A program made the position numbers and the translations under genes. Source: Branchiostoma floridae (Eukaryota; Chordata; Leptocardii; Amphioxiformes; Branchiostomatidae). Taken from it: a DNA stretch of 64,000 nt. The DNA is taken from positions 3,553,323-3,617,322 of the forward strand of contig NC_049996.1 of assembly GCF_000003815.2 (NCBI RefSeq). Direction: 5' to 3'. The notes beneath the pieces are model-generated. The model saw only the letters and a program-made list of their open reading frames with translations, was not told the DNA's origin and ran no database searches. Numbering within the stretch: position 1 is the first letter of the stretch; each line of letters opens with the position of its first letter. Of this stretch, positions 1 through 64,000 are shown one piece after another.

Positions 1-2308
1 CTAAACGTTGGCATTACGTACCCACAGCAGACAATAGCGTGGTTATGATTAAAGTTTTCCTGCTTATTTACACAAGGCAAGGGCAATTACTGCACTTATT
101 CAAGGTTGTCACAAGCATAACTAATCTTCATACAAGCAGACCTCTCCAAACAAACTGCACTACACTTTTAACTCTTTACCAAGATATGCTTATTAGCCGT
201 TTTTAGCGAAGTGCAATTTTAAAAAAAATCCAATTGGATATCATGGCTGCTCTGCAATTACATTATCATTACAAATACATATAAATGTATGCACATTGTA
301 TTCAGACAAAAAGGATCGCACTCTGTTTTTATACTTAGAGTTAATCAGCTAATACAGTATATTGATGAACAAAGCTAATTAGCGACTGTATGTTTGCACG
401 GAGTCTGTTTTGCATATCTAAATGTTTTGCATGCTTTTTGTCTGAAAAAAGGATGCAGCAATTGCAGTTATTATACGTCTGTTATAAACTTAACGTCCCA
501 TTTATTTTCCACATAAACTAATCAGTTTATGATTATCTAATTATTCTGATTAACTGTTTGTAGTACAGTGCATTACTAAATTACACAGCATATACCATGA
601 CGTGGTGTCTGAAAAGTCATAAAAACTTATTCATGTCTGTCATGAAATACAATGTTTGAACTCATGGTTGGTATAATAATATCTCTAATTGTCACTTAGT
701 TTACTAGTTACAATATTGTCCCAAATAGCCTAATCATACATAAAGCTGGTGTTTCTGTCACAGTAACGCTTCTTGTACGTGACTTTGCTATCCTCTCCTT
801 GGTGTCTGTTGATGCCACCTTTGTAGCCAGTTGACTATTGTGTTCTCTGACAGGCCAGACTTTGTGGCATTAGTTGAGTTCGAGCACCCGACCAATAATG
901 AATTTAGCACTGTCAAATTGACACCCTCTATCAAGGCACAACCCCACCTGTCTGCACAACAGTCCTGGTGGTGTATCCTCTTCCTCCAGTAGAAAATAGA
1001 ATAGAATACAATAATTAGTATTTCCTTTGTGTAATTTCATGTACTGCCACCCAGAGTAAAAGGAAGATCCTTTTTGTTTGTTGATTAGAAAAAAAGCCAC
1101 ACCTGATTACATATATTCTTGTACAACCAACCTGAATGGACAATTCACAACATAGTGTAACGTTTGTACTAGTAGATTTGCCCTTGAAAATCTGTACTAT
1201 CATATAACGTTACTATGGAAGAGAACTACTGTACACTTTTCACTGATAATTAGTAGAATCATATCATAATGTTTAATTAGTAGAATTGTAAGATATACTC
1301 TGTATTCTTTCTTTTTTCGGTGCAGTTTAAAGTTGGCCATACAAAATTGACTGTCCTTTTTGTCGTGTCAATAAAGCTTGATGATACAATACTAACGTTA
1401 GTACTGTCTCATCAGTCACTGCAAAGCGCAACAATATTCCATGCATGCGCTCCCACTTACCGCGGCATTCTGACGCTACGGTATCGCTTATCCAGACACT
1501 CTAAACGTGGGTAAATCAAACAAAAACTACACAATAACGACGACAAGTTACACAAATTTGTTACTGCGTTTGTGTATTGTTGCCAATTTTAAGATAAACA
1601 GTACAATTTTTCACTTACTTTTAACGGACTTCTTCCCGGCGACATATATGTACTCCCAGCCGCTAAGTTGAAAAACCCTTCCTCATTGGCTGTACCCGAG
1701 CTGACCAATCAGGTCATCGCTTCCGCTAAGTGTCGGGCGCATATTGGTTCCCTTCTAAATTCAATTAGCCACAATGCACAGCTGCAGGTAAACAGCTTAC
1801 GTCACGCGCGGAAACGTCCATAACCATATATGGTGCAACGGACGCACGTGCAAACGTGACCATATATGGTTACACGCGCGAAACGCGAGCTCGGTGAAAA
1901 TATGCGTAGATACCCCACCAAATTGGCTTTTAAATGATTTTGAAGTGACGATTGGCCAAAAATAATACCGGGGTCCTTTTAATAAGTATCTCACGCAGTA
2001 TCATACCAACTTTCAAGTCATCTGGACGTAATACCTGGGCACGGGAGACATGAATATACAGCCGGGCCAGAAAACGACCTTAAAACATCCCTAAAATCAT
2101 TGTAAAGGTATCTATCAAGAAAATGAGAAAAACGGGTCTGGGTATTGGCCCACTGTACCCTTGCGCCAAATTTCAGGCCATTTGGTCCAGGAACGACGGA
2201 GAGGAATCACTTTAAAGGTCGCGACAGGAGAAAGAAAGAAAGAAGAAACCGTATGAAAACAATATTTTCACTCGAAGCGTACCTACGGTACGCGGAGTGA
2301 AAATAATT
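1..2308 (-). mobile_element. 2.3 kb dispersed repeat, left copy (inverted partner at 34200-36510)
   Basis: This stretch is the reverse complement, with small differences, of 34200-36510. The match runs from the window edge to the imperfect palindrome at about 2262-2308 (TTTTCACTC ... GAGTGAAAA around a TACCTACGGTA core). Inside the palindrome lies a short GAAA-type tract near 2228-2245, preceded by a stretch of the form CCAAATTTCAGGCCATTTGG. The outer end at base 1 is cut by the window, so the true 5' end is unknown. The strand given is that on which the longer ORF of the partner copy reads; here that ORF is split by a frameshift near 1090. Hairpin end plus microsatellite resembles Helitron/Helentron-derived (HINE) elements, but this class is an inference. 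Confidence 0.8.
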
Positions 2309-2559
2309 AAGTGTTTTGCGAGATACAATAGTAAATATGCGTGTGAAATGCATACGTTTTGTTTTGAGATTTTGTTGATTGTCTGGTCTCGATATTTTAA
2401 TATTAACATTTTCACGTTGTTTACTCCACGTTGCCTTTGAATATTTTAATGCTATCATATGAGTTTTGCGGAAAAAAATCTTAGGGTATCATTCTATGTG
2501 GGGCCTGAATTTGTTTCAATCGCTCTTCTTGACACTGCGAAATAGGTTCATATACGCGT

Positions 2560-25773: not shown

Positions 25774-26985
25774 ATGACAAGAAAGTCGCTATTTCGGAAT
25801 CCTAGAACACTGTTACTTGCCATTCTTCTGGTTGCATCTTCGGGTTACTTGTACTTTTCGCTGACTCTCTCATGCCTGGCATCGGAGCAAAATAAGATAC
25901 GAGATTTGCCTGAACTTGTAGTAAGTCAACCCTTGGAAAAGAAGAAATCAGTAACACCAGCGCCTCTAGCAATTCGCAAGCGAACTGCAGTCATAATCAT
26001 AGCTCCAATGCGAAGTGGCTCAACGTTCGTTGGCGAACTATTCAACCAACATCCCAACGCCTTTTACGTCTTCGAACCATTCTGGGCCCTTGAGAATTAT
26101 GCAAACAAGACTTACGACATCACTACGGAAACGAAACTCACATTCCTGGAGGGAATATCGTCATGCAAATTCCAGGGAATTCAGGGTGTTATGAGGTTCT
26201 ATCTTACTACTAAAGGCATGGGGGTTTACAAAACATGTAAAGCGATAGAAAGTATGTGTGCTCGATACAGAAACCAAACGAAGGGAAAGATCACACTAGC
26301 ACAAAGATGTCCTGTGCCACCTTCATCGCTACCAAGTGTTCTAAGATCAACTTGCGAGGCAAAACAATTCACCGCCATCAAGACGATACGTTTGGACGAC
26401 CTGACGATTCTACAACCTCTCACCCTTGTCGATGACCTTGACTTCAAGGTTATACAGCTTGTTAGAGACCCAAGGGCTGTCATCTCCTCAAGAATCGCGC
26501 TGGGTAGGAAAAACATTTCCCTCCTGTCATCTTTAAACACCAAAGTCGACAAGAAGGAAGTACGTCAACTCTGTGACCGAATGGTAAGAAATGCACAACC
26601 CTACAAAGACAACGCTAGCTGGCTACGCGAACGATACGCTTTAGTTCGCTACGAGGACGTTGGACTAAAACCTCTGGATATGATGCAGAAATTTTACAAT
26701 TTCATCGGCGTTACTCCAAATAAAAACGTCACTGATTGGATCAAAACACACACCAAGACAGCCAAAAGGAAGAAAGATAGGAACGATCCATTTGGAACTA
26801 TCAAAGACCCACTTCAGGCTTGTAACCAATGGAGAACAAGACTCACATTCGATGAAGCCAAAGTGATACAGTCGGAGTGTAAAGAGGCGATGACCATATT
26901 TGGCTACGAATATGTCACTTCCGCCAAGCAGATGAGAAACAAATCTGTGGATCTTTACGATACGAGAGCGCCTATAGTGCTCTGA
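25774..26985 (+). CDS. Carbohydrate sulfotransferase (CHST, Gal/GlcNAc/GalNAc 6-O type), paralogue 1
   Basis: A 403-residue single-exon ORF with type II Golgi topology: short basic N-terminus, membrane anchor at about 12-31 (TLLLAILLVASSGYLYFSL), short stem, then the catalytic domain. The 5'-phosphosulfate-binding loop is MRSGSTFVGELFNQHP (R80) and the 3'-phosphate-binding motif is LVRDPRAVISSR (231-240). Enzymes of this family transfer sulfate from PAPS to C6 of a sugar in glycosaminoglycan or glycoprotein chains. The acceptor cannot be told from the sequence. Several N-x-S/T sites are present. A TCTTTTTCAG acceptor-like site at 25651-25660 suggests a non-coding upstream exon. All key residues are intact. 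Confidence 0.93.
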   Translation: MTRKSLFRNPRTLLLAILLVASSGYLYFSLTLSCLASEQNKIRDLPELVVSQPLEKKKSVTPAPLAIRKRTAVIIIAPMRSGSTFVGELFNQHPNAFYVFEPFWALENYANKTYDITTETKLTFLEGISSCKFQGIQGVMRFYLTTKGMGVYKTCKAIESMCARYRNQTKGKITLAQRCPVPPSSLPSVLRSTCEAKQFTAIKTIRLDDLTILQPLTLVDDLDFKVIQLVRDPRAVISSRIALGRKNISLLSSLNTKVDKKEVRQLCDRMVRNAQPYKDNASWLRERYALVRYEDVGLKPLDMMQKFYNFIGVTPNKNVTDWIKTHTKTAKRKKDRNDPFGTIKDPLQACNQWRTRLTFDEAKVIQSECKEAMTIFGYEYVTSAKQMRNKSVDLYDTRAPIVL

Positions 26986-28582: not shown

Positions 28583-29077
28583 AGATTGGTTTTGAAGTGG
28601 AGGCGTATGTACGTAAGTAAAGTTCACATCGAAGGGAAAGAAAATCACATTGTCTGTACTTATGCTTATGACTATGTATATGTATATTTTTTTGCAAATC
28701 GTGTCCCTGTTGTTGAATTGATCGTAGTTGTAAACAGTGTAAAGGCACAAACTTGAGAAACCTTTCTGATCTTGTAGCCAAATATTTGCTAACTGGCGGT
28801 ATGAAATAATTGATCTTGTAATCGTGTAGATAATACGAACTATTTCATTTCCATTTTTTTTCCATTCTAGAACCACAAAAGAACACACCAGCAAAACCAA
28901 TATGTTTTCCCTACTAGAAAAATGATGCAAAGTCATAACGATATGCATATTCATCGATGTGCCACCAAGATCGCTGCTTCAGACAGAAACCGTTTAATTT
29001 TACCGCAGCACCTACTGTTGTAGGGCGCTGTTCTGAACCAGTCTAAAACAACAACAGCAAACTTTAAAGGGTTTATT

Positions 29078-30602
29078 AGTCTGTGACCAGACCCTCTGGT
29101 CGACAGACTTTTAGTTTTGTCACGTTTACGCGCGTTCGCAGCTGTATCTGTATGTTCCCGTTGTCTGAATTCTATGTGGTTTGGCAGGTCCTTTGTACTG
29201 AGGTTGACGATGATGCACGTGAACTTTTTTTTGCGGCAGGTGGTTTTATTATGGATTTTATAAAAATAACACCCCTACAATTTGTTCGTCTTGCGGTGTT
29301 TTGGTCCAGATCCTCTGTATGTGGGTCATGGTGTCATTGGAATTTGTCAAGCAGATGCGTGGTGTTACCTGATCGTCAAAGTTATTCGCGTTCGCATCGG
29401 TATCTGCATGTTCCCGTTGTCGCATACGTACGTTGTTTGGCAGGTCATCTGCACTGATGTTGACGATGATGCACGTTGTTTTTGTTTTTTTGTTTTTGCG
29501 GCAGTTGGTTTTATTAGGGACGCAATAAAAATAACACCCCTACAAAATGTTCATCTTTCGGTGTATTAGTCCAGATCCCCTGTATATGGGTCATGCTGTA
29601 ATTGAGATATTGCAAGCAGATGCGTGATGTTCTCTGGTCGTCAATGTAACGCGCGTTCGCATCTATATCTGCATGTTCCCGTTGTCGCATACGTTTGTGG
29701 TTTGGCGGGTTCTCTACACATAGTTGGACGATGATGCAAGGTGTTTTATTTTTTCGGCAGCTGTTTTTATTATGTATGTAATAATTTCAGATATCACCCC
29801 TGCAAATTGTACGTTTCACAGTGTATTGGCCCATGTCTGCATATGGTGCCCGTTGAGGTAATTGGGTATAGTTAAGCAGATGCGCGATATGTGCAAGAAT
29901 TTTACGCGCCTTTGCTTTCTACCTCTTATTCAACAAGTTTATCCGTACTACTTTAATATGTACCAGCATCATGGACCCCGGGATTCACCCATTAACACTG
30001 TGTCATGCTACCTTATGGCTTCACACTAGTTAAACACTTATCGCACAGTTCATCATCAACAGCTGTGTGTTATCGTATGTGGGACATGGGAACCGACATC
30101 TAATGTTCCACTAATGACCCTGTCAATCAAATACCTCCTGTCGCCGTTTGCAATGAAGCGTGTAAGAATTCTCGTCCCAAATGAAGTTTAGCCATATTAT
30201 ATTCCCGGACTTCGACTAAGAAACATCAAGGTCCTATTCCGTGCTTCATACTTATTACGTCCATAACAGAAACATGTTAATACTTGGTGCGTTTGTCAGT
30301 CTGCCTGTCGGTCTTGTAGGTGTGTCTGTGTGTGAATGTGCCTGTGTATTAGAGTAGACCATCCGGTAACTTATCGTCACCATATCTTTTTGACTTTGGC
30401 CACATGTTATCTCACAATCCATACCTGTTTAGTAAGATTCACATGACACAGAAATATTAGGCAACTTTAGATACAACGATATATCTAACACCATGAAAAG
30501 AATCATATAGGATATAAGCACAACGTCACACACCAAAGAAGACAAAGCAACCAACATATACCAGACCGACGTCACAGACTATGTTACCTACGGTCACTTG
30601 TT
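29078..30602. mobile_element. ~1.5 kb insertion upstream of LRR copy A, with ~260-bp tandem repeats
   Basis: Absent at the matching point of copy B, where GGGTTTATT joins directly to TTAGTTTC. The insert opens TAGTCTGTGACC and closes GGTCACTTG, possibly short inverted ends. From 29080 to 29930 it holds three to four units of about 260 bp, marked by TCTGCATGTTCCCGTTGTCG (29404, 29668; variant at 29145) and ATAACACCCCTACAA. ORFs across it are repeat by-products. 29930-30600 shows nothing recognisable. Confidence 0.7.
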
Positions 30603-30665
30603 TTAGTTTCTATTTGAAACGAAGTCATAGAAACTGACAAAGACGGAGGACCACCTGTTAAATAT

Positions 30666-31121
30666 CGGGGCCACGTAGCACAGTGGTAGCGTATTCGGCC
30701 CGTGACCGAGAGGTCGCCGGTTCGAATCCGCCTGCCGTGTTGCCGGTCTTGTGCCCTTGGGAAAGGCACTTTACACGACTTTCCTCACTTTACTCAAGTG
30801 AAAATGAGTCGTCCCTCGGATAGGACGTTAAATGGAGGTCCCGTGTTTGGGGAGAGCCACACCCCGGGCACGTAAAAAAGAAACCGCCACATGTGCGATG
30901 GTGCGATGTGGCGGATCAAACCATTCCGGCCAAAATGGGGTAGGGAATTTCCCGAGCAGCCTCGTAACCCCTGCTTCGCCTATTGAGTCAGTGAAGTCAA
31001 GCTTGCTTAAGCTTGATGTTTCTGACTTAGGGAGAAGAGATGCTGCTAAAGTTATCGCTATGGGCCACTCTTCATCACCATGATGGTAACATCAGGCCCT
31101 ACTAACATGATTTAGAAAAAA
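30666..31121 (+). mobile_element. tRNA-derived SINE abutting the LRR start codon
   Basis: The tRNA-like head reads GTAGCACAGTGGTAGCGTAT, CGGCCCGTGACCGAGAGGTC and GGTTCGAATCC (A and B boxes), followed by a body (GGGAAAGGCACTTTACACGA) and an A-tail at 31115-31121. AAATAT is duplicated at 30660-30665 and 31122-31127. Copy B has a single AAATAT at this point, so the boundaries are known. The right-hand duplicate overlaps the first two bases of the LRR start codon (31126-31128). Confidence 0.88.
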
Positions 31122-31125
31122 AAAT

Positions 31126-32725
31126 ATGAAAGTAAGTGGACTGTTGCTGCTCGTTTTGTTTGGATGTCTGTGGTCGGGTTGTTTTTGTCTGTCGGCTAAA
31201 TGTAAAATTAAGCAGCACCAATGGTTGAGTGGGACTTCACTTGACTGTAATCGTCAAAACCTTAAAACGATTCCTGATGACATACCGCCCAACGCTGTAC
31301 GACTTACTGCCAGATCAAATAACATCAGAAACATAACCTACCAGCCACAACTACCGCAATTGGAAATATTGGACCTGGGTATGAACTGCATGGAGTGGTT
31401 TTCCTGGACGTCGTTGCGTGCTCTGCCGGCTTTGCGTCATCTAATTTTAAATAGAAACAAACTATGGCATGTGCAGCTGGACATCGTCATAGAACAGCTG
31501 CCGAAGCTTGAAATCCTTGATGTAAGTTTTAACAAACTTACGTCGTTCTCTCATAACGAACTGGGATGGCCACAAGTGAGCATGGCCTTTATCGCGGGAA
31601 ACCTCTTTCACTGTGACTGTGACCTCTCCTGGCTGATTGACAAGATGGCGTGTTTACAGGCCTGTGAGGGGGAGAGATTTAAAGCGCGCTGTTGGCTGTC
31701 GTGTGCAGCCTTTTTGCTTGTTCCCAACCGGAACCAAACATTCTGTCACAGTCCAAGTCAACTCAACGGGCTGTCTTTATCAGACGTGTCCAAGAAGCTG
31801 ACCGGTTGTGGACCACACCAGCTGACCACAAAAGCTTTTATGACCACTACGGATGAGGCTAAGATTCAATACACTAGCCAGTCACATGCTATGGTAACCA
31901 GCACCTTACGAGGGGCATTCAATAAGTAATCCACCTGACCCACTTCCAGTTGTTTGATCTAAATAAAATTTTGCATGTGTAATGAGTCATATCTCTATGG
32001 GTTATGTTGCAAAAAACAGCTCTGAACTAATTGCGGTTACTGATTTACTGGTGTTTGAACTGAGTCAGGTGTGAAATGGACCAGGTGTGAAATGGAGCAA
32101 GTTGAGTGTCGCGCAGTGATCCGGTTTTTGTATTTGAAAGGACGCACACCAAAGGGGACTTTTGATGAAATGAAAAAAAATTATGGTGATGATGCCCCAT
32201 CATATGGCCTTGTAAAACGCTGGCATCCTGAATTCAAACAAGGCCGGAAGTCTGTGGAAACAGCTCCCAGACCTGGTCGTCCCTCTTCTGCCATTAATGA
32301 GGCATCTGTCGGAGGACCAACCTGGGATGTCCTACAAGAACGGTGTCCAGAGCTACATCAAATGATGGGAGAAATGCAAAACTCTGGGTGGTTCCTATGA
32401 AGAGAAAGACTAATAACTGTGCCAAGTTTCATTAATCTCCTGCTATGGGAAACGGGTCAGGTGGATTACTTATTGAATGCCCCTCGTACATGCAACTGTT
32501 CGTTCTGACACTAAACCTAAACCAACTGGAAATAACAAGGACTTGGCTACAAATACCTGGGATCGTCCTATCGAATCAAGTGGTGACTCCACAACGGCAA
32601 AAGGAATCGCAGCCCCAACAATTGTACTCAGCGCAATGGCAGGGACGATGAGTTGCCTTACCCTGGTGATATTGTGCTATCGTCTGTACAAAAGAAAATT
32701 CTATAACTATGCCCAAGCTGACTAA
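31126..32725 (+). pseudogene. Small LRR membrane receptor, copy A, interrupted by a mariner element
   Basis: The ORF 31126-31929 (267 codons) gives a signal peptide (LLLLVLFGCLWSGCFCLS), LRRNT, about four LRRs (LPQLEILDLGMN, LPALRHLILNRN, LPKLEILDVSFN), an LRRCT (NLFHCDCDLSWLI ... CLQACEG) and a Thr-rich stalk. At TSTL the coding sequence is broken by the element at 31909-32486, which adds RGAFNK and a stop. The rest of the gene (HATVRSDTKPKPT ... membrane span SAMAGTMSCLTLVILCYRLY, stop 32723-32725) follows in the same sense at 32489. As it stands the product would lack its membrane anchor and could be secreted, unless the element is spliced out. The intact paralogue is at 39028-39996. Confidence 0.88.
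31909..32486 (+). mobile_element. Internally deleted mariner element in LRR copy A
   Basis: 578 bp, flanked by TA (31907-31908 and 32487-32488). The ends are inverted: CGAGGGGCATTCAATAAGTA against TACTTATTGAATGCCCCTCG, with about 34 bp of arm. Coding from 32092 reads MEQVECRAVIRFLYLKGRTP, then YGDDAPSYGLVKRWHPEFK and TAPRPGRPSS, the N-terminal DNA-binding part of a mariner transposase. The catalytic DD(34)D part has been deleted, so it cannot move itself. Confidence 0.92.
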
Positions 32726-33789: not shown

Positions 33790-34199
33790 GAGTCATACAG
33801 TGTATTACAGCACAGTTGAGGTGGTATACCCTTTCCCGATGACGAAGGGCTATTTATCTAAAGATTAGTACTGGGGTATGTTGTTGATTTGGAATTATCA
33901 TTTCTAAATGTTTGAACAGATAAATGCAGTAATGACTATTCGGTTCTCATATATTTGTACATAAACATAAAAAAAGTTTACTGAAAATTCTTGCCCGTGG
34001 GCTAATTGCAGGTAACATAAGAGACTCAAACAGTGTAAAAACAATGTCACAAGTGTCTACTCTAGTCCAAAGCTAGTAAAAGCTAACTCTAGATCCTGGG
34101 TTATTGGGTCCGACTCCTTTTTCGAAGACAGTGGAAGCCGGAAGATCTCACCTTTTCTATTATGTGTTGGTTTTGTGATGTCAGAAGGAGAACTGCTTT
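33790..34199. other. Spacer of the inverted duplication, no gene seen
   Basis: AT-rich sequence between copy A and the 2.3 kb repeat. A CCCGTGGGCTAATTGCAGG phrase near 33995 resembles LINE tails. A (CAT)n tract lies at 33617-33635. Confidence 0.35.
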
Positions 34200-34260
34200 A
34201 TTATTTTCACTCCGCGTACCGTAGGTACGCTTCGAGTGAAAATATTTTCATACGGTTTCT

Positions 34261-34291
<31 letters not shown>

Positions 34292-36510
34292 CCCGTCGCG
34301 ACCTTTAAAGTGATTCCTCTCCGTCGTTCCTGGACCAAATGGCCTGAAATTTGGCACAAGGGTACAGTGGGCAAATACCCAGACCCGTTTTTCTCATTTT
34401 TTTGATAGATACCTTTACAATGATTTTAGGGATGTTTTAAGGTCATTTTCTGGCCCGGCTGTATATTCATGTCTCCCGTGCCCAGGTATTACGTCCAGAT
34501 GACTTGAAAGTTGGTATGATACTGCGTGAGATACTTATTAATAGGACCCCGGTATTATTTTTGGCCAAACGTCACTTCAAAATCATTTAAAAGCCAATTT
34601 GGCGGGGTATCTACGCATATTTTCACCGAGCTCGCGTTTCGCGCGTGTAACCATATATGGTCACGTTTGCACGTGCGTCCGTTGCACCATATATGGTTAT
34701 GGACGTTTCCGCGCGTGACGTAAGCTGTTTACCTGCAGCTATGCATTGTGGCTAATTGAATTTAGAAGGGAACCAATATGCGCCCGACACTTAGCGGAAG
34801 CGATGACCTGATTGGTCAGCTCGGGTACAGCCAATGAGGAAGGGTTTTTCAACTTAGCGGGAGTACATATATGTCGCCGGGAAGAAGTCCGTTAAAAGTA
34901 AGTGAAAAATTGTACTGTTTATCTTAAAATTGACAACAATACACAAATGCAGTAACAAGTTTGGGTAACTTGTCGTCGTTATTGTGCAGTTTTTGTTTGA
35001 TTTACCCACGTTTAGAGTGTCTGGATAAGCGATACCGTAGCGTCAGAATGCCGCGGTAAGTGGGAGCGCATGCATGGAATATTGTTGCGCTTTGCAGTGA
35101 CTGATGAGACAGTACTAGTATTGTATCATCAAGCTTTATTGACACGACAAAAAGTACAGTCAATTTTGTATGGCCAACTTTAAACTGCAACGAAAAAAAG
35201 AAAGAATACAGAGTATATCTTACAATTCTACTAATTAAACATTATGATATGATTCTACTAATAATCGGTGAAAAGTGTACAGTAGTTCTCTTCCATAGTA
35301 ACGTTATATGATAGTACAGATTTTCAAGGGCAAATCTACTAGTACAAACGTTACACTATTTTGTGAATTGTCCATTCAGGTTGGTTGTACAAGAATATAT
35401 GTAATCAGGTGTGGCTTTTTTCTAATCAACAAACAAAAAGGATCTTCCTTTTACTCTGGGTGGCAGTACATGAAATTACACAAAGGAAATACTAATTATT
35501 GTATTCTATTCTATTTTCTACTGGAGGAAGAGGATACACCACCAGGACTGTTGTACAGACAGGTGGGGTTGTGCCTTGATAGAGGGTGTCAATTTGACAG
35601 TGCTAAATTCATTATTGGTCGGGTGCTCGAACTCAACTAATTCCACAAAGTCTGGCCTGTCAGAGAACACAATAGTCAACTGGCTACAAAGGTGGCATCA
35701 ACAGACACCAAGGAGAGGATAGCAAAGTCACGTACAAGAAGTGTTACTGTGACAGAAACACCAGCTTTATGTTTGATTAGGCTATTTGGGACAATATTGT
35801 AACTATTAAACTAAGTGACAATTAGAGATATTATTATACCAACCATGAGTTCAAACATTGTATTTCATGACAGACATGAATACGTTTTTATGACTTTTCA
35901 GACACCACGTCATGGTATATGCTGTGTAATTTAGTAATGCACTGTAGTACAAACAGTTAATCAGAATAATTAGATAATCATAAACTGATTAGTTTATGTG
36001 GAAAATAAATGGGACGTTAAGTTTATAACAGACGTATAATAACTGCAATTGCTGCATCCTTTTTTCAGACAAAAGGCATGCAAAACATTTAGATATGCAA
36101 AACAGACTCCGTGCAAACATACAGTCGCTAATTAGCTTTGTTCATCAATATAATGTATTAGCTGATTAACTCTTAGTATAAAAACAGAATGCGATCCTTT
36201 TTGTCTGAATACAATGTGCATACATCTATATGTATTTGTAATGATAATGTAATTGCAGTGCAGCCATGATATCCAATTGGATTTTTTTTTAAATTGCACT
36301 TCGCTTAAAACGGCTAATAAGCATATCTTGGTAAAGAGTTAAAAGTGTAGTGCAGTTTGGTGATGTCTGCTTGTATGAAGATTAGTTATGCTTGTGACAA
36401 CCTTGAATAAGTGCAGTAATTGCCCTTGCCTTGTGTAAATAAGCAGGAAAACTTTAATCATAACCACGCTATTGTCTGCTGTGGGTACGTAATACCAACG
36501 TTTAGGGTCG
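34200..36510 (+). mobile_element. 2.3 kb dispersed repeat, right copy (inverted partner at 1-2308)
   Basis: Second copy of the repeat at 1-2308, in opposite orientation. It begins with the palindrome at about 34200-34240 followed by a longer (TTTC)n tract (34258-34290) and ends near 36510 at a GTACGTAATACCAACGTTTAG stretch. It contains a 110-codon ORF at 35308-35640 that is unbroken here but frameshifted in the left copy. I do not recognise its product. Just downstream, in another frame near 35651-35700, the reading SGLSENTIVNWLQRW looks like the helix-turn-helix of Merlin/ISXO2-type transposases, which is only a weak hint. Two ATATATGGT-type palindromes lie at 34649-34694. The element sits in the spacer between the two small LRR genes. 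Confidence 0.8.
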
Positions 36511-39027: not shown

Positions 39028-39996
39028 TTAGTCAGCTTGGATATACATGTAGCATTTTATTTTGTACAGACGATAGCACAATATCACAATAGTAAGGCAA
39101 CTCATAGTACCCGCCATTGCACTGACTACAATGTTTTGGGCTGCGATTCCTTTTGCTGTTGTGGTGTTATTTTTAGTTGGTTTAGGTTTAGTGTCAGAAC
39201 GAGCAGTTGCATTCAAGGTGCTGGTTACCATAGCCTGTGTCTGGCTAGTGGACTGAATCTTAGCCTCCTTTGTAGTGGTCATAGCAGCTTTTGTGGTCAG
39301 CTGGTGTGGTCCACGACCGGTCAGTTTGTTGGACACGTCTGATAAAGACAGCCCGTTCAGTTGACTTGGACTGTGACAGAAAGTACGATTCCGGTTGGGA
39401 AAAAGAAAATAGGCTGCGCAAGACTGCCAACAGCGCGCTTTAAATATCTCCCCCTCACAGGCTTGTAAACACGCCATCTTGTCAATCAGCCAGGAGAGGT
39501 CACAGTCACAGTGAAAGGGGTTTCCCGCGATCAAGGCCATGCTCACTTGTGGCCATCCCAGTTCGTACTGAGAGAACGACGTAAGTTTGTTAAATCTTAC
39601 ATCAAGGATTTCAAGCTTCGGCAGCTGTTCTATGACGATGTCCAGCTGCACATGCCATAGTTTGTTTCTATTTAAAACTAGATGACGCAAAGCCGGCAGA
39701 GCACGCAACGACGTCCAGGAAAACCACTCCATGTAGTTCCAACTAAGGTCCAAAGTTTCCAATAGCGGTAGTTGTGGCAGGTGAGTTACGTTTCTGATGT
39801 TATTGTACCTGGCAGTAAGTCTTACAACGTTGGACGGTATGTCATCAGGAATCGTTTTAAGGTTTCGGAGATCACAATCAAGTGAATTCCCATTCAACAA
39901 TTGGTGCTGTTGTATTTTACATTTAGCCGACAGACAAAAACAACTCGACCACAGACATCCAAACAAAACGAGCAGCAACAGACCACTTACTTTCAT
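39028..39996 (-). CDS. Small LRR single-pass membrane receptor, copy B (intact, 322 aa)
   Basis: Single-exon ORF. The signal peptide is at about 1-22 (LLLLVLFGCLWSSCFCLS). An LRRNT-like Cys pair and IPDDIPSNVVRL follow. About four LRRs then read LPLLETLDLSWN, LPALRHLVLNRN and LPKLEILDVRFN. The LRRCT is NPFHCDCDLSWLI with cysteines to HSPSQLNG. A Thr-rich stalk precedes one membrane span (about 288-310, VVSAMAGTMSCLTIVILCY) and a tail of about a dozen residues. Roughly nine residues in ten match copy A. The short tail has no signalling motif, so it may act as a co-receptor, decoy or adhesion molecule; that is inference. The start ATG directly follows AAAT, the untouched version of the site where the SINE entered copy A. 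Confidence 0.9.
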   Translation of the reverse strand: MKVSGLLLLVLFGCLWSSCFCLSAKCKIQQHQLLNGNSLDCDLRNLKTIPDDIPSNVVRLTARYNNIRNVTHLPQLPLLETLDLSWNYMEWFSWTSLRALPALRHLVLNRNKLWHVQLDIVIEQLPKLEILDVRFNKLTSFSQYELGWPQVSMALIAGNPFHCDCDLSWLIDKMACLQACEGEIFKARCWQSCAAYFLFPNRNRTFCHSPSQLNGLSLSDVSNKLTGRGPHQLTTKAAMTTTKEAKIQSTSQTQAMVTSTLNATARSDTKPKPTKNNTTTAKGIAAQNIVVSAMAGTMSCLTIVILCYRLYKIKCYMYIQAD

Positions 39997-41860: not shown

Positions 41861-43057
41861 TTAGGGAATAATAGAATACCGTTTACCGTAAAGGTTAAGA
41901 GAGGTATTTCTCAGCTCTTCTTTTGTCTCAACTATTTGATAATGGAATAACTCCATGGCCTTCTTACAAACGGACTGAATGGTGTTTACTTGACGAATAC
42001 TAAGTCTGGTTCTCCACTCGTTGGACGTTTTCATAGGATCTTTTTTTGTTCCGAACGGATTTTCTCTGTCTTTTCTTCTCTTCGCTGCATGAATGTGATT
42101 TTCTAGCCATTTAGAGACTTCTGTTTTTGGAGAAACGCCGATAAATTTATACAGTTTCTCCATAGAATGTATTGGTTCCATTCCGACATCCTCGTATCGA
42201 ATTACGGCGAAGCGTCCGCTTAGCCAATCAGCTTTGTTTCTGTAAAGTTCCGCGTTTCTAATCATCCAATCACAGAGCTCCTGCACTTCTGCCTTGTTGA
42301 CCTTGTCGTGAAGAACAGTCATAACGGAAACGTTCTTTTTGCTGAGATTGAGGCGTGACGCAATAACGGCTCGCGGGTCTCTCACCAACTGAATTATTTT
42401 CAAATTCAAATCGTCCTCTTCTGCCATTGGCTGGAGTAGTTTTATATCGTCCAATCGGATCGTCTTAATCGCTGTGAACTGTTTTCCTTCGCAAGTTGAT
42501 TGCAAAACGGTTGGAAGTGTATTTTCTGGAATCGGACATCTTTTTGGCCAGGTGGCGTTCGCACTTTTGTCTCTGAAACCGTCGCACATTTTGTCGACTG
42601 CATGGCATGTTGTCATCACCCCTAAACCTTTCGTGGTGAGATAAAATTTCATAACGTCCTTTATTTGCTCAAATCTACAGCCAGAAACTCCTCTCAAAAG
42701 CTCTAGCTGCATGCCTGGATTGTTGTAGGTTTTGTTCTTGTGGTTTTCGAGGGCCCAAAGCGGCTCAAATATGTAGAAGGCATTTGGGTGCTGATTAAAT
42801 ATTTCACCAACGAACGTGAAACCACTCCTCATTTGAGTGACGATTATAACTGCAGTTCGTCTTTGAGTTGCTAGGGGCGTTACTGTACTGTACTTACCGA
42901 TTTCCGTACCTTGAACGTTACGTGTCAATTTTACTGCAGCTGGTCCCATGTGTTGAATAGTCGACAAGGCATACAGGTAGGCGACACACCCAAATAAAAG
43001 AGTGATGATAAGCGCGATTCTGAGATTCAGAAATAAAAGTGCTTTACAAAAGTGCAT
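41861..43057 (-). CDS. Carbohydrate sulfotransferase, paralogue 2, with altered PAPS loop
   Basis: A 398-residue single-exon ORF, type II: anchor at about 10-31 (LNLRIALIITLLFGCVAYLY), short stem, catalytic domain. The 3'-phosphate motif LVRDPRAVIASR (225-235) is intact. The 5'-phosphosulfate loop reads RSGFTFVGEIFNQHP (R77-F82), where the other two paralogues have RSGSTF. The codon is TTC, one change from TCC. That serine belongs to the conserved loop that binds the sulfate donor, so activity may be reduced or lost; the rest of the frame is clean. Paralogue 3 lies 5.3 kb away on the same strand. Confidence 0.92.
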   Translation of the reverse strand: MHFCKALLFLNLRIALIITLLFGCVAYLYALSTIQHMGPAAVKLTRNVQGTEIGKYSTVTPLATQRRTAVIIVTQMRSGFTFVGEIFNQHPNAFYIFEPLWALENHKNKTYNNPGMQLELLRGVSGCRFEQIKDVMKFYLTTKGLGVMTTCHAVDKMCDGFRDKSANATWPKRCPIPENTLPTVLQSTCEGKQFTAIKTIRLDDIKLLQPMAEEDDLNLKIIQLVRDPRAVIASRLNLSKKNVSVMTVLHDKVNKAEVQELCDWMIRNAELYRNKADWLSGRFAVIRYEDVGMEPIHSMEKLYKFIGVSPKTEVSKWLENHIHAAKRRKDRENPFGTKKDPMKTSNEWRTRLSIRQVNTIQSVCKKAMELFHYQIVETKEELRNTSLNLYGKRYSIIP

Positions 43058-48348: not shown

Positions 48349-49737
48349 CTAGAAAAGCTGAGGCGGTCTTTTCTGGTACAGACTGACATCAATGTTCTTT
48401 AGTTCTTCATGAGACTCGACAAATTTGTAATGGAACAACGTCATAGCTTCTTTGCATTCTGATTGGATGATTTGAACCTGTTTGAAACTCAACCTCGTCC
48501 GCCATTCGTTGGCGGTTTTCTCTGGGTCTTTTTTGGTTCCGAAGGGGTCTTTCCTGTCTTTCATCCTTTTTGCCTTTTTTGTGTGACTTCCAAGCCATTT
48601 GGAAACGTCCCTAGACATTGGTATGTTAATTAGCTTGTAGAATCTCGCCATGGTTGTCATGGGGTCCAGACCAACGTCCTCGTACCGTACTAGAGCGTAC
48701 CGTTTGCGTAACCACTCGCTCTGGTCGCGGTAAGGTTGCATGTTTGTCGTCATCCAGTCGCAGACCGTTCGTACTTCGCTTCTGTCTACATCGTTGTGAA
48801 GATGGTTTGTGACGGACACGTTATTCTTTACCAAAGCAAGTCGTGAAGCAATGATCGCTCTAGGATCTCTCACCAACTGAACAATCTTGAAATTCAGTTC
48901 TTCATCTTCCGTTAACGGCTTAAAAAGTGTTATATCGTTTAGTCGTATTGTCTTGATGGCAGTGAATTTGTTCTTGAGGCAGTTCGTTTGCAGAACTTCT
49001 GTGAATTTGTCGTCAGGGATCGGACATCTTCCGGGCCATTTTCTAGTCTTGTTTCTGTATCTGTCGCACATGCTGTCTATCGCTCTGCAAGTTTTCATGA
49101 CACCGAGTTCCTTGGTAGTCAGGTAAAATTGCATGATGTCACGAATTGGTTCAAATTTGCATTTTGAAAGTCCCTCTAGTAGCTTTAGTTGCCATGCCGT
49201 ACTGTTGTACGCTTTGTTTTTGTTGTATTCCAGTGCCCAAATCGGTTCGAAGAAGTAGAAGGCGTCAGGGTGTTGGTTGAATATCTCCCCCACGAAAGTT
49301 GATCCACTCCGCATTTGAGTCATGACTATGACTGCAGTTCGTTTAGTTGCCACTTCAGTTTGTTTAGATACCGCTAGGGGCGCTGCTTTCTTCTTTGTCC
49401 TTGGTTGGGGTGTTGTAGTTACTGACTTGTCTTCGAAACCGCCAAAGATGAACTCAAGTGGGTCAATTTCTTCAGGCTGCTCGGGACGTATGACCAGCTT
49501 TGAAGGAGATTCTTGGTCTTGAAGTCGCTCTAAGTTGTAGCCAGCGTCTTCGAGTTTCTCCAAGGGGCTTCTGACGTCTTGGAGCATCCTTAGCATCTTA
49601 CCATCGTTTGGTTCCTCGTAGGGGAAAGTGAATGCCAAATACGTGTACGTGGAAGTCCCCACGAAGAGTACAAGGAGTAGTATCTTCCTCAAGTTGAGGA
49701 GAAGCAGTTTCCTGCACATATGCATTGTTCTACACAT
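48349..49737 (-). CDS. Carbohydrate sulfotransferase, paralogue 3 (long stem)
   Basis: A 462-residue single-exon ORF, type II: anchor at about 11-36 (LLLLNLRKILLLVLFVGTST). It has a long, charged stem (about 40-130, with KLEDAGYNLERLQDQE and PEQPEEIDPLEFIFGG) that the other two paralogues lack. The catalytic domain follows: 5'-phosphosulfate loop MRSGSTFVGEIFNQHP (R143) and 3'-phosphate motif LVRDPRAIIASR (290-299), both intact. It should transfer sulfate from PAPS to a 6-hydroxyl of a Golgi glycan; the acceptor is unknown. Other Met codons at residues 5 and 7 could also serve as starts without changing topology. Confidence 0.93.
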   Translation of the reverse strand: MCRTMHMCRKLLLLNLRKILLLVLFVGTSTYTYLAFTFPYEEPNDGKMLRMLQDVRSPLEKLEDAGYNLERLQDQESPSKLVIRPEQPEEIDPLEFIFGGFEDKSVTTTPQPRTKKKAAPLAVSKQTEVATKRTAVIVMTQMRSGSTFVGEIFNQHPDAFYFFEPIWALEYNKNKAYNSTAWQLKLLEGLSKCKFEPIRDIMQFYLTTKELGVMKTCRAIDSMCDRYRNKTRKWPGRCPIPDDKFTEVLQTNCLKNKFTAIKTIRLNDITLFKPLTEDEELNFKIVQLVRDPRAIIASRLALVKNNVSVTNHLHNDVDRSEVRTVCDWMTTNMQPYRDQSEWLRKRYALVRYEDVGLDPMTTMARFYKLINIPMSRDVSKWLGSHTKKAKRMKDRKDPFGTKKDPEKTANEWRTRLSFKQVQIIQSECKEAMTLFHYKFVESHEELKNIDVSLYQKRPPQLF

Positions 49738-62971: not shown

Positions 62972-64000
62972 TTAACGTGTCTTCCACCACGTGAGCATGT
63001 CGTCCAGCTTGCCCATCCACCACGGCACGCCATCTACCTCCTCCGGGGCGCACAGCAGCCTGAACAGGCGGGGGAAGGTGCGATGTAGCCAGCCGAGAGG
63101 GAGGAGAAGACCGTGCGCTAACTTCAGCGGCAACTTGTCCGTATAGCACGAGACATACACACCGTTTACGATCATGTAGCCACTGTACGTGTGTGGACAG
63201 TACTGACCGCTTTTCAACACATAGCGAACGTTTACTACCTTTTCGGGTACCAGGGATTCTGTAGACTCTACGACGGTGAAAATCTTGTCGCCTTCTGCGA
63301 TGTCTTTGGCGGCAACAGTGACGTTCTTTTCACCTTTGATGATCGCGATGAGATGGCTCTTCGAGAGTGCGACCGTCTTGCCCGTTTCTGTGGTCACGGC
63401 AATGAACGTTGATAGGACGTCTTCAACAGCATGGCTGTAGAGGAACACTGGCTCAAATATGGCTGCAGATACTTTCACCTTGTCATCTACATGAAGAGAG
63501 CAGAGAGGAACTTCTGTAACCTCACTGTCAGAACCTGTCATCACCAAGACAGACGACGACGATGGAAGGCAGTCCTTTTTGGCGTCTTTCTCCACTTCTT
63601 TCTGCAGCTTCTGCATGATTTCCTTTCCCTGTCCCTCGTTCTCTTGTACTAAGGTCACCAGTTCCTCATACTTACGATGTATCTCTGCTAAATTGGTGTG
63701 CCGTATCGTCGTTGGGATGTTGTTCCTCTGCTTGCGAGGATGGTGTTTGGTTGTTGACGTCCAGAGGAAGTGCTGCTGCAGCGCCTTGCTCATCGTTTTC
63801 AAGTTCACGGGCAGCGGCATCCTTCGTGCGCTGATCAACAGATATTCCCGTGGCCTTGAACGCTGGCATTGAAGATGAACGTTTGGTACGGTCACCTCTG
63901 CGATTGCTCCTTCTAGATCGAGCTTGCGCATTCTGTCCACTGGCTTGCTGGTTCATCGTCTTCATAGCCTTGACAGCTACAGTTTTCCCGCTGTTGTCTT
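62972..64000 (-). CDS. Hint-domain (Hedgehog/intein-type) protein, 3' part, runs off the window
   Basis: The C-terminal half reads a short coiled coil (HRKYEELVTLVQENEGQGKE ... KLQKEVEKDAKKD), then a Hint domain. It starts at a catalytic-type Cys (DCLPSSSSVLVMTG, codon near 63570), continues with FIAVTTETGKTVALSKSHLI (the TxxH-like block reads SKSH), and ends YSGYMIVNGVYVSCYTD, the counterpart of the Hedgehog VVDGVVASCY block. Hint domains cleave their own chain at the Cys. A mature N-terminal signalling domain is not visible here. Upstream, the protein-like reading is in a different frame (open from 64000 to about 63672: KTVAVKAMKTMNQQ, RSRRSNRRGDRTKRSSS, ENDEQGAAAALPLDVNNQ). The switch lies near 63670-63700, where a GTAAGT donor-like word also sits, so either splicing or an indel joins them. 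The gene begins beyond the right edge. Confidence 0.8.

What the first reader, a model, noticed from the sequence alone, without database searches (positions are those of the whole stretch)
31907..32488. A mariner element turns one of two duplicate LRR receptors into a probable secreted form
The TA duplication, ~34-bp inverted ends and N-terminal transposase remnant are visible. The intact inverted duplicate (39028-39996) shows the uninterrupted sequence at the same codon. The break falls exactly between the LRR ectodomain and the membrane span, adding six residues and a stop. The result would be a soluble ectodomain beside an anchored twin, a possible decoy pair. If splicing removes the element, both forms could be made.
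Basis: partly seen in the sequence, partly recalled or inferred. Interest (0 to 1): 0.75.

Follow-up and report, generated by a model that had tools for sequence, protein, structure and literature searches.

The report
Young mariner MITE truncating a receptor
In what looks like a lancelet genome, a recently jumped DNA transposon has cut short one of two duplicate cell-surface receptor genes; because two other mobile elements also sit in that gene's start region, it is more likely a decaying copy than a purpose-made secreted decoy.

Summary
A 578-bp internally deleted mariner (31909-32486), flanked by TA duplications and with 33-bp perfect inverted ends, interrupts an LRR receptor frame, adds RGAFNK and a stop, and is absent from the inverted twin (39028-39996). 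It belongs to a very young high-copy family: the 40 genomic copies scored, its own included, are 97-100% identical to it, and it differs from its subfamily majority at 3 bases, 1 of them private.

The insertion looks younger than typical allelic divergence in lancelets, so it may well be polymorphic, and selection on a "soluble form" cannot be read from the sequence. The break lies mid-stalk, as do 14 of 50 TA sites of the coding pieces. No good acceptor follows the element, so splicing it out is unlikely. A soluble ectodomain remains possible (in-frame stop, then a poly(A)-type hexamer), but no call shows that it is made.

The parts
31909..32486 (+). 578-bp non-autonomous, internally deleted mariner (MITE), + orientation of the transposase remnant
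31907..31908 (.). TA target-site duplication, left
32487..32488 (.). TA target-site duplication, right
31909..31941 (.). left terminal inverted repeat, 33 bp perfect
32454..32486 (.). right terminal inverted repeat, 33 bp perfect
32092..32307 (+). N-terminal transposase remnant (HTH_48, Mos1 type)
   Evidence: E 5.8e-8; 86-88% identical to the open mariner frames of L092/L093
32330..32413 (+). C-terminal transposase remnant with an in-frame stop
   Evidence: frame 1
31927..31929 (+). stop codon TAA supplied by the TIR after RGAFNK
31962..31967 (+). AATAAA poly(A)-type hexamer 33 bases after the stop codon; present in 20 of 21 copies of this subfamily and 1 of 19 others
31126..31908 (+). copy A: hydrophobic N-terminus, LRRs, LRRCT and about half of the stalk, 261 codons
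32489..32725 (+). copy A, downstream piece: rest of stalk, membrane span and short tail, frame still open (78 codons)
39028..39996 (-). twin (copy B), uninterrupted 322-aa LRR receptor
30666..31121 (+). SINE-like repeat inserted against the start codon (6-bp duplication AAATAT at 30660-30665 and 31122-31127), 12 upstream ATGs
29078..30597 (+). 1520-bp high-copy repeat of undetermined class, splitting the conserved upstream block (ends good to a few bases)
28879..29077 (+). distal part of the split upstream block (twin 40244-40058, 83.5%)
30598..30665 (+). proximal leader part of the split block (twin 40062-39995, 95.6%)

Best explanation
A non-autonomous mariner (MITE) of a recently active family jumped into a TA in the stalk region of copy A, one member of a large LRR receptor family (126 matched places in the genome) (shown). 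Its TIR supplies a stop after six residues, and an AATAAA typical of its subfamily begins 33 bases later (shown). Copy A also carries a 1520-bp repeat and a SINE-like repeat that separate its conserved upstream block from the coding region and put 12 ATGs before the start codon (shown; the order of the insertions is not known). The most likely outcome is a copy with little or no normal expression: a young, probably still segregating loss-of-function allele, or a pseudogene in the making within a birth-and-death receptor family (inferred). If it is transcribed and translated, the product would be an ectodomain with a hydrophobic N-terminus and no membrane anchor (inferred).
For: Element family: 40 scored copies, own included, 97-100% identical, of 1071 candidates. 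TA at both ends in 39 of 40; the exception (L051) lacks its first bases. The window copy differs from its subfamily majority at 3 of 582 bases, 1 of them private among 21 copies. Internal deletion relative to the open mariner frames of L092 and L093, about 88% identical on both sides of the gap. Copies A and B: dS 0.136, dN 0.071 over 261 codons, so the duplication is far older than the insertion. The block before the start codon is contiguous in the twin and matched in 5 of 8 paralogs compared, but in A it is displaced to -2247..-2049 and -528..-463. The intervening sequences are high-copy repeats: 40 scored matches at 99-100%; 40 of 41 matches at 94-100%, the 41st a 75% partial; both counts include the window's own. 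12 upstream ATGs; 5 in the last 100 bp before the start in A, 0 in B. Lancelet heterozygosity 3.2-4.2% (PMC12500494, abstract and passages) exceeds the element's 0.2-0.5%.
Against: Apart from the insertions, the two coding pieces of A show no other stop or frameshift. A/B omega is 0.53 before the break (261 codons) and 0.57 after it (61 codons), so the pair was under some constraint for most of its history. Outgroup assignment shows no faster decay in A than in B. Upstream ATGs are not unique to A: 6 of the 13 paralogs counted have 1-2 in the last 100 bp and B has 5 in its last 300 bp; no transcription start is known. Three insertions in A against none in the compared stretches of B is not significant by itself. 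A repeat could supply a new promoter. No expression data were available.
Confidence: 0.8

Rival explanations
1. Soluble decoy: the MITE's stop and AATAAA end the transcript early, copy A is secreted as an anchor-less LRR ectodomain and competes with, or complements, the anchored twin.
For: Hydrophobic N-terminus and LRRCT cysteines kept in A; in-frame stop with AATAAA beginning 33 bases later; the frame is read without introns, so no downstream splice junction is expected. Transposon-derived truncated or decoy receptors exist in mammals (PMC13232192, abstract; PMC7617988, start of abstract in the search listing).
Against: Upstream block split by two repeats and 12 upstream ATGs; too young for selection to show; A carries P160L and the twin C228R at near-invariant LRRCT positions; ligand unknown; no signal-peptide predictor was run.
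Confidence: 0.1
2. The element is spliced out of the pre-mRNA, so both anchored and soluble forms are made from copy A.
For: The downstream frame is open and keeps the membrane span.
Against: In 41 of 49 family loci read, twin included, one frame without introns reaches the membrane span; best acceptor after the element 0.8 against a shuffle median of 3.4, best donor 4.3 against 4.2 (weights hand-set from recalled consensus).
Confidence: 0.03
3. Assembly artefact.
For: Three repeats in one gene in a highly heterozygous genome; a switched haplotype could bring them together.
Against: Clean TA duplication, full-length element with one private base, 6-bp duplication around the SINE-like repeat, and coding flanks that match the twin up to the break.
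Confidence: 0.05

Closest known systems
mariner elements and their MITEs (Tc1/mariner superfamily)
   Same: TA duplication, about 30-bp TIR, HTH_48 N-terminus, internal deletion relative to an open DD34D-type element (34 residues between the last two D, counted by eye on the translation; the DD34D label is recalled)
   Different: No feature seen that sets it apart; the window copy is one of at least 40 near-identical ones
Transposon-derived truncated or decoy receptors (IL18R1-Short, PMC13232192, abstract; IL13RA1-LOR1a, PMC7617988, listing)
   Same: A transposon supplies early termination or an alternative end, and the encoded receptor lacks downstream parts
   Different: IL18R1-Short comes from an intronic poly(A) signal, both isoforms come from one gene, and dampening of signalling was measured (abstract); here it is an exonic break in a duplicate, without expression data
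Amphioxus VLR-like protein Bf66946 (PMC4731796, passages; PDB 4xsq)
   Same: LRRNT, few LRRs and LRRCT; phmmer E 1.6e-9
   Different: Not the closest solved relative (TLR7/8, LRRC32 and GPIb-alpha entries score higher); the window family has a stalk, a membrane span and variable tails
Amphioxus BbLcLRR (PMC8211107, abstract and section 24 read)
   Same: Lancelet LRR membrane receptor; some window-family paralogs also have long Tyr-rich tails
   Different: 699 aa with a WSC domain; the window twin is 322 aa with a very short tail

Membership tests
mariner (Tc1/mariner) | TA target-site duplication | tested here: met
   window copy and 39 of 40 copies in all; L051 lacks its first bases
mariner (Tc1/mariner) | short terminal inverted repeats of about 30 bp | tested here: met
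   33 bp perfect
mariner (Tc1/mariner) | Mos1-type HTH and DDE transposase | tested here: inconclusive
   HTH_48 present, catalytic part deleted in the window copy; relatives L092/L093 lie at PF01359 matches with open 354-aa frames
MITE | short, non-autonomous, high copy number, uniform length | tested here: met
   40 scored copies of 578-590 bp, flanking TAs included
LRR receptor family (LRRNT-LRR-LRRCT-stalk-TM) | hydrophobic N-terminus, LRRs, cysteine-rich caps | tested here: met
   Pfam LRR_8 8.3e-10; LRRNT 0.03, below its cut-off; no Pfam LRRCT hit, LRRCT assigned from the cysteine pattern
LRR receptor family (LRRNT-LRR-LRRCT-stalk-TM) | membrane span | tested here: not met
   the copy A frame stops before it; present in the twin at 289-307 (hydropathy)
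soluble decoy receptor | secreted ectodomain is expressed | not testable with these tools
   no RNA data held; the split upstream block argues against it
soluble decoy receptor | competes with the anchored form for a ligand | not testable with these tools
   ligand unknown

The most novel reading that the evidence does not exclude
The AATAAA-bearing subfamily of this MITE is a portable secretion switch: read in the + orientation it gives a stop within 6-17 codons in all three phases, two of them inside the TIR that is identical at both ends, and an AATAAA that begins 33 bases after the stop used here. Insertion into the stalk of a single-exon receptor would then yield a stable mRNA for a soluble ectodomain, and copy A would be a segregating soluble allele next to an anchored twin.
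Probability: 0.08. Interest if true: 0.5.

Novelty: new member of a known kind. Interest (0 to 1): 0.2.

Why it matters
If a soluble allele were really expressed, it would be a natural, possibly polymorphic case of a DNA transposon converting a lancelet receptor into a secreted one. As it stands it shows how young transposons erode copies in a fast-turning receptor family, and that a neat-looking truncation needs its upstream region checked first.

Tried and rejected
Decay test on the downstream piece: open over 78 codons, but uninformative because the insertion is too young. Branch assignment of A/B differences with six outgroup paralogs: A-derived 12 nonsynonymous and 4 synonymous, B-derived 10 and 1, ambiguous 16 and 12; no sign that A decays faster. 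A regular-expression count of the last LRRCT cysteine misfired on the signal peptide and is not used; near-invariance rests on the 15-sequence alignment. Exon search among MITE copies: 5 of 40 have a stop-free run of 95 or more codons into the element (flanks of 500 bp in 32 copies, 1500 bp in 8); by eye two look retrotransposon-derived (L008, L059), one kinase-like (L056), one (L039) is unassigned, and the fifth is the window copy. Loci without a membrane span: 1 of 29 among the top-ranked (L027), 8 of 49 when 20 further loci, chosen partly for short frames, are added. ARAGORN finds no tRNA in the SINE-like repeat and Rfam has no hit at gathering score; its tRNA-like A and B boxes are read by eye. 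The class of the 1520-bp repeat was not resolved.

Literature: searches; no title or abstract start listed there reports this insertion, and the unlisted hits were not seen. The L1-derived soluble attractin and the IFNAR2 decoy are recalled; one search listed no useful attractin paper, and the listings were not opened.

Full report
What is there. The window is G000:C18:3553323-3617322 of a 513.4-Mb, 431-contig assembly. Size, long chromosome-like contigs and gene content suggest the lancelet Branchiostoma floridae; this is recalled knowledge plus the general figures of about 500 Mb and 18-20 chromosomes in PMC12500494 (passages), not a test.

The element. TA duplications at 31907-31908 and 32487-32488 enclose 578 bp whose ends are perfect inverted repeats of 33 bp. 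Two transposase remnants remain: an HTH_48 N-terminus and a C-terminal end. A search for PF01359 gave 7 matches over the cut-off; the three with open frames of 350-354 aa were fetched. Two of them, L092 and L093, align to both halves of the window element at about 88% with the middle missing in the window copy; the third (L091) has no DNA match to it. So the element is an internally deleted derivative of a mariner lineage that still has open frames in this genome.

Its age. Of 1071 first-look candidates the tool scored 40, own included, and these match at 97-100%. I read all 40: TA at both ends in 39, one copy (L051) lacking its first bases. They form two subfamilies whose majorities differ at 12 positions. 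In the subfamily of 21 that holds the window copy, copies differ from the majority at 0-6 bases, the window copy at 3, only 1 of them private. Lancelet heterozygosity is 3.2-4.2% (PMC12500494), that is about 1.6-2.1% per lineage. An insertion with 0.2-0.5% change is therefore younger than a typical pair of alleles and may well be polymorphic (inference). The two gene copies are far older: dS 0.136 and dN 0.071.

The break. Copy A reads ...VTSTL|RGAFNK*. The twin reads through the same Leu codon with TTG instead of TTA, and the two further paralogs compared (L017, L018) have GTG there, so among these four the TA target is seen only in copy A. The break is mid-stalk. Of 50 TA sites in the two coding pieces 14 lie in the stalk, and reading into the left TIR meets a stop in all three phases, within 6-17 codons. 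A truncation before the span needs no special explanation. An AATAAA begins 33 bases after the stop codon; it occurs in 20 of the 21 copies of this subfamily and in 1 of the 19 others.

In the twin and in five paralogs (L011, L012, L014, L015, L016) a block of about 210 bp directly before the start codon is conserved at 75-86%, in one piece in four of the five and in two pieces in L016; the three others compared (L017, L018, L020) show no match there. In copy A this block is split: its distal part lies at -2247 to -2049 and its last 66 bp at -528 to -463. The first gap is a 1520-bp sequence with 40 scored matches at 99-100%, own included, one of them covering only 1-1435. The second is a SINE-like sequence of about 455 bp with 40 of 41 matches at 94-100%, own included, a few missing some end bases, and the 41st a 75% partial match. 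It is flanked by a 6-bp duplication AAATAT that overlaps the start codon and brings 12 ATGs, the longest reading 83 codons. This suggests that copy A's own promoter and leader no longer work as in its relatives. Against this: 6 of 13 paralogs counted also have 1-2 ATGs in the last 100 bp, the twin has 5 in its last 300 bp, no transcription start is known, three insertions against none is not significant between two copies, and a repeat might bring a promoter.

The family. The twin's protein finds 126 matched places in the genome, a count of similarity hits rather than of genes. Of 49 loci read, twin included, 41 have a membrane span after residue 230, with short, medium or long Tyr-rich tails. 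Among the 29 top-ranked loci 1 lacks the span. With 20 more loci, chosen partly for short frames, it is 8 of 49; by eye these look mostly like frameshifts, breaks or assembly gaps. Loss of the anchor by damage therefore also happens here without this MITE. Each twin departs from the family at a near-invariant LRRCT position: P160L in A and C228R in B.

Mechanism and rivals. The best-supported account is a young MITE insertion in a duplicate that is also disrupted by two other transposon-like repeats, giving a probably segregating null or a pseudogene. The soluble-decoy reading is encoded in principle and has mammalian precedents in kind (PMC13232192, abstract; PMC7617988, listing), but expression, secretion and competition are undemonstrated. 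Splicing out the element lacks a credible acceptor (with hand-set weights).

Noticed in passing
window 29078-30597: 1520-bp repeat, 40 scored matches at 99-100% genome-wide (own included), with an internal 265-bp tandem array; class unresolved.
   Followed up: partly
window 30666-31121: SINE-like repeat abutting the start codon of copy A, with 3735 first-look candidates in the genome, 40 scored.
   Followed up: partly
window 39028-39996: The 'intact' twin has Arg where the last LRRCT cysteine is near-invariant in the family alignment.
   Followed up: partly
L009-L038, L071-L090: LRR family with a shared ectodomain but at least three kinds of stalk and tail, suggesting exchange of 3' ends.
   Followed up: no
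L092, L093: Mariner copies with open 354-aa frames, relatives (about 88%) of the MITE.
   Followed up: partly
L056:217-501: Another copy of this MITE borders a stop-free run that looks kinase-like by eye.
   Followed up: no
window 25774-26985, 41861-43057, 48349-49737: Three related ORFs (65-67% DNA identity) that look like carbohydrate sulfotransferases by eye; not searched.
   Followed up: no
window 1-2311 and 34196-36505: Inverted repeat pair, 97% identical over 2.3 kb.
   Followed up: no
window 62972-63931: ORF that looks like a Hint-type module by eye; not searched.
   Followed up: no
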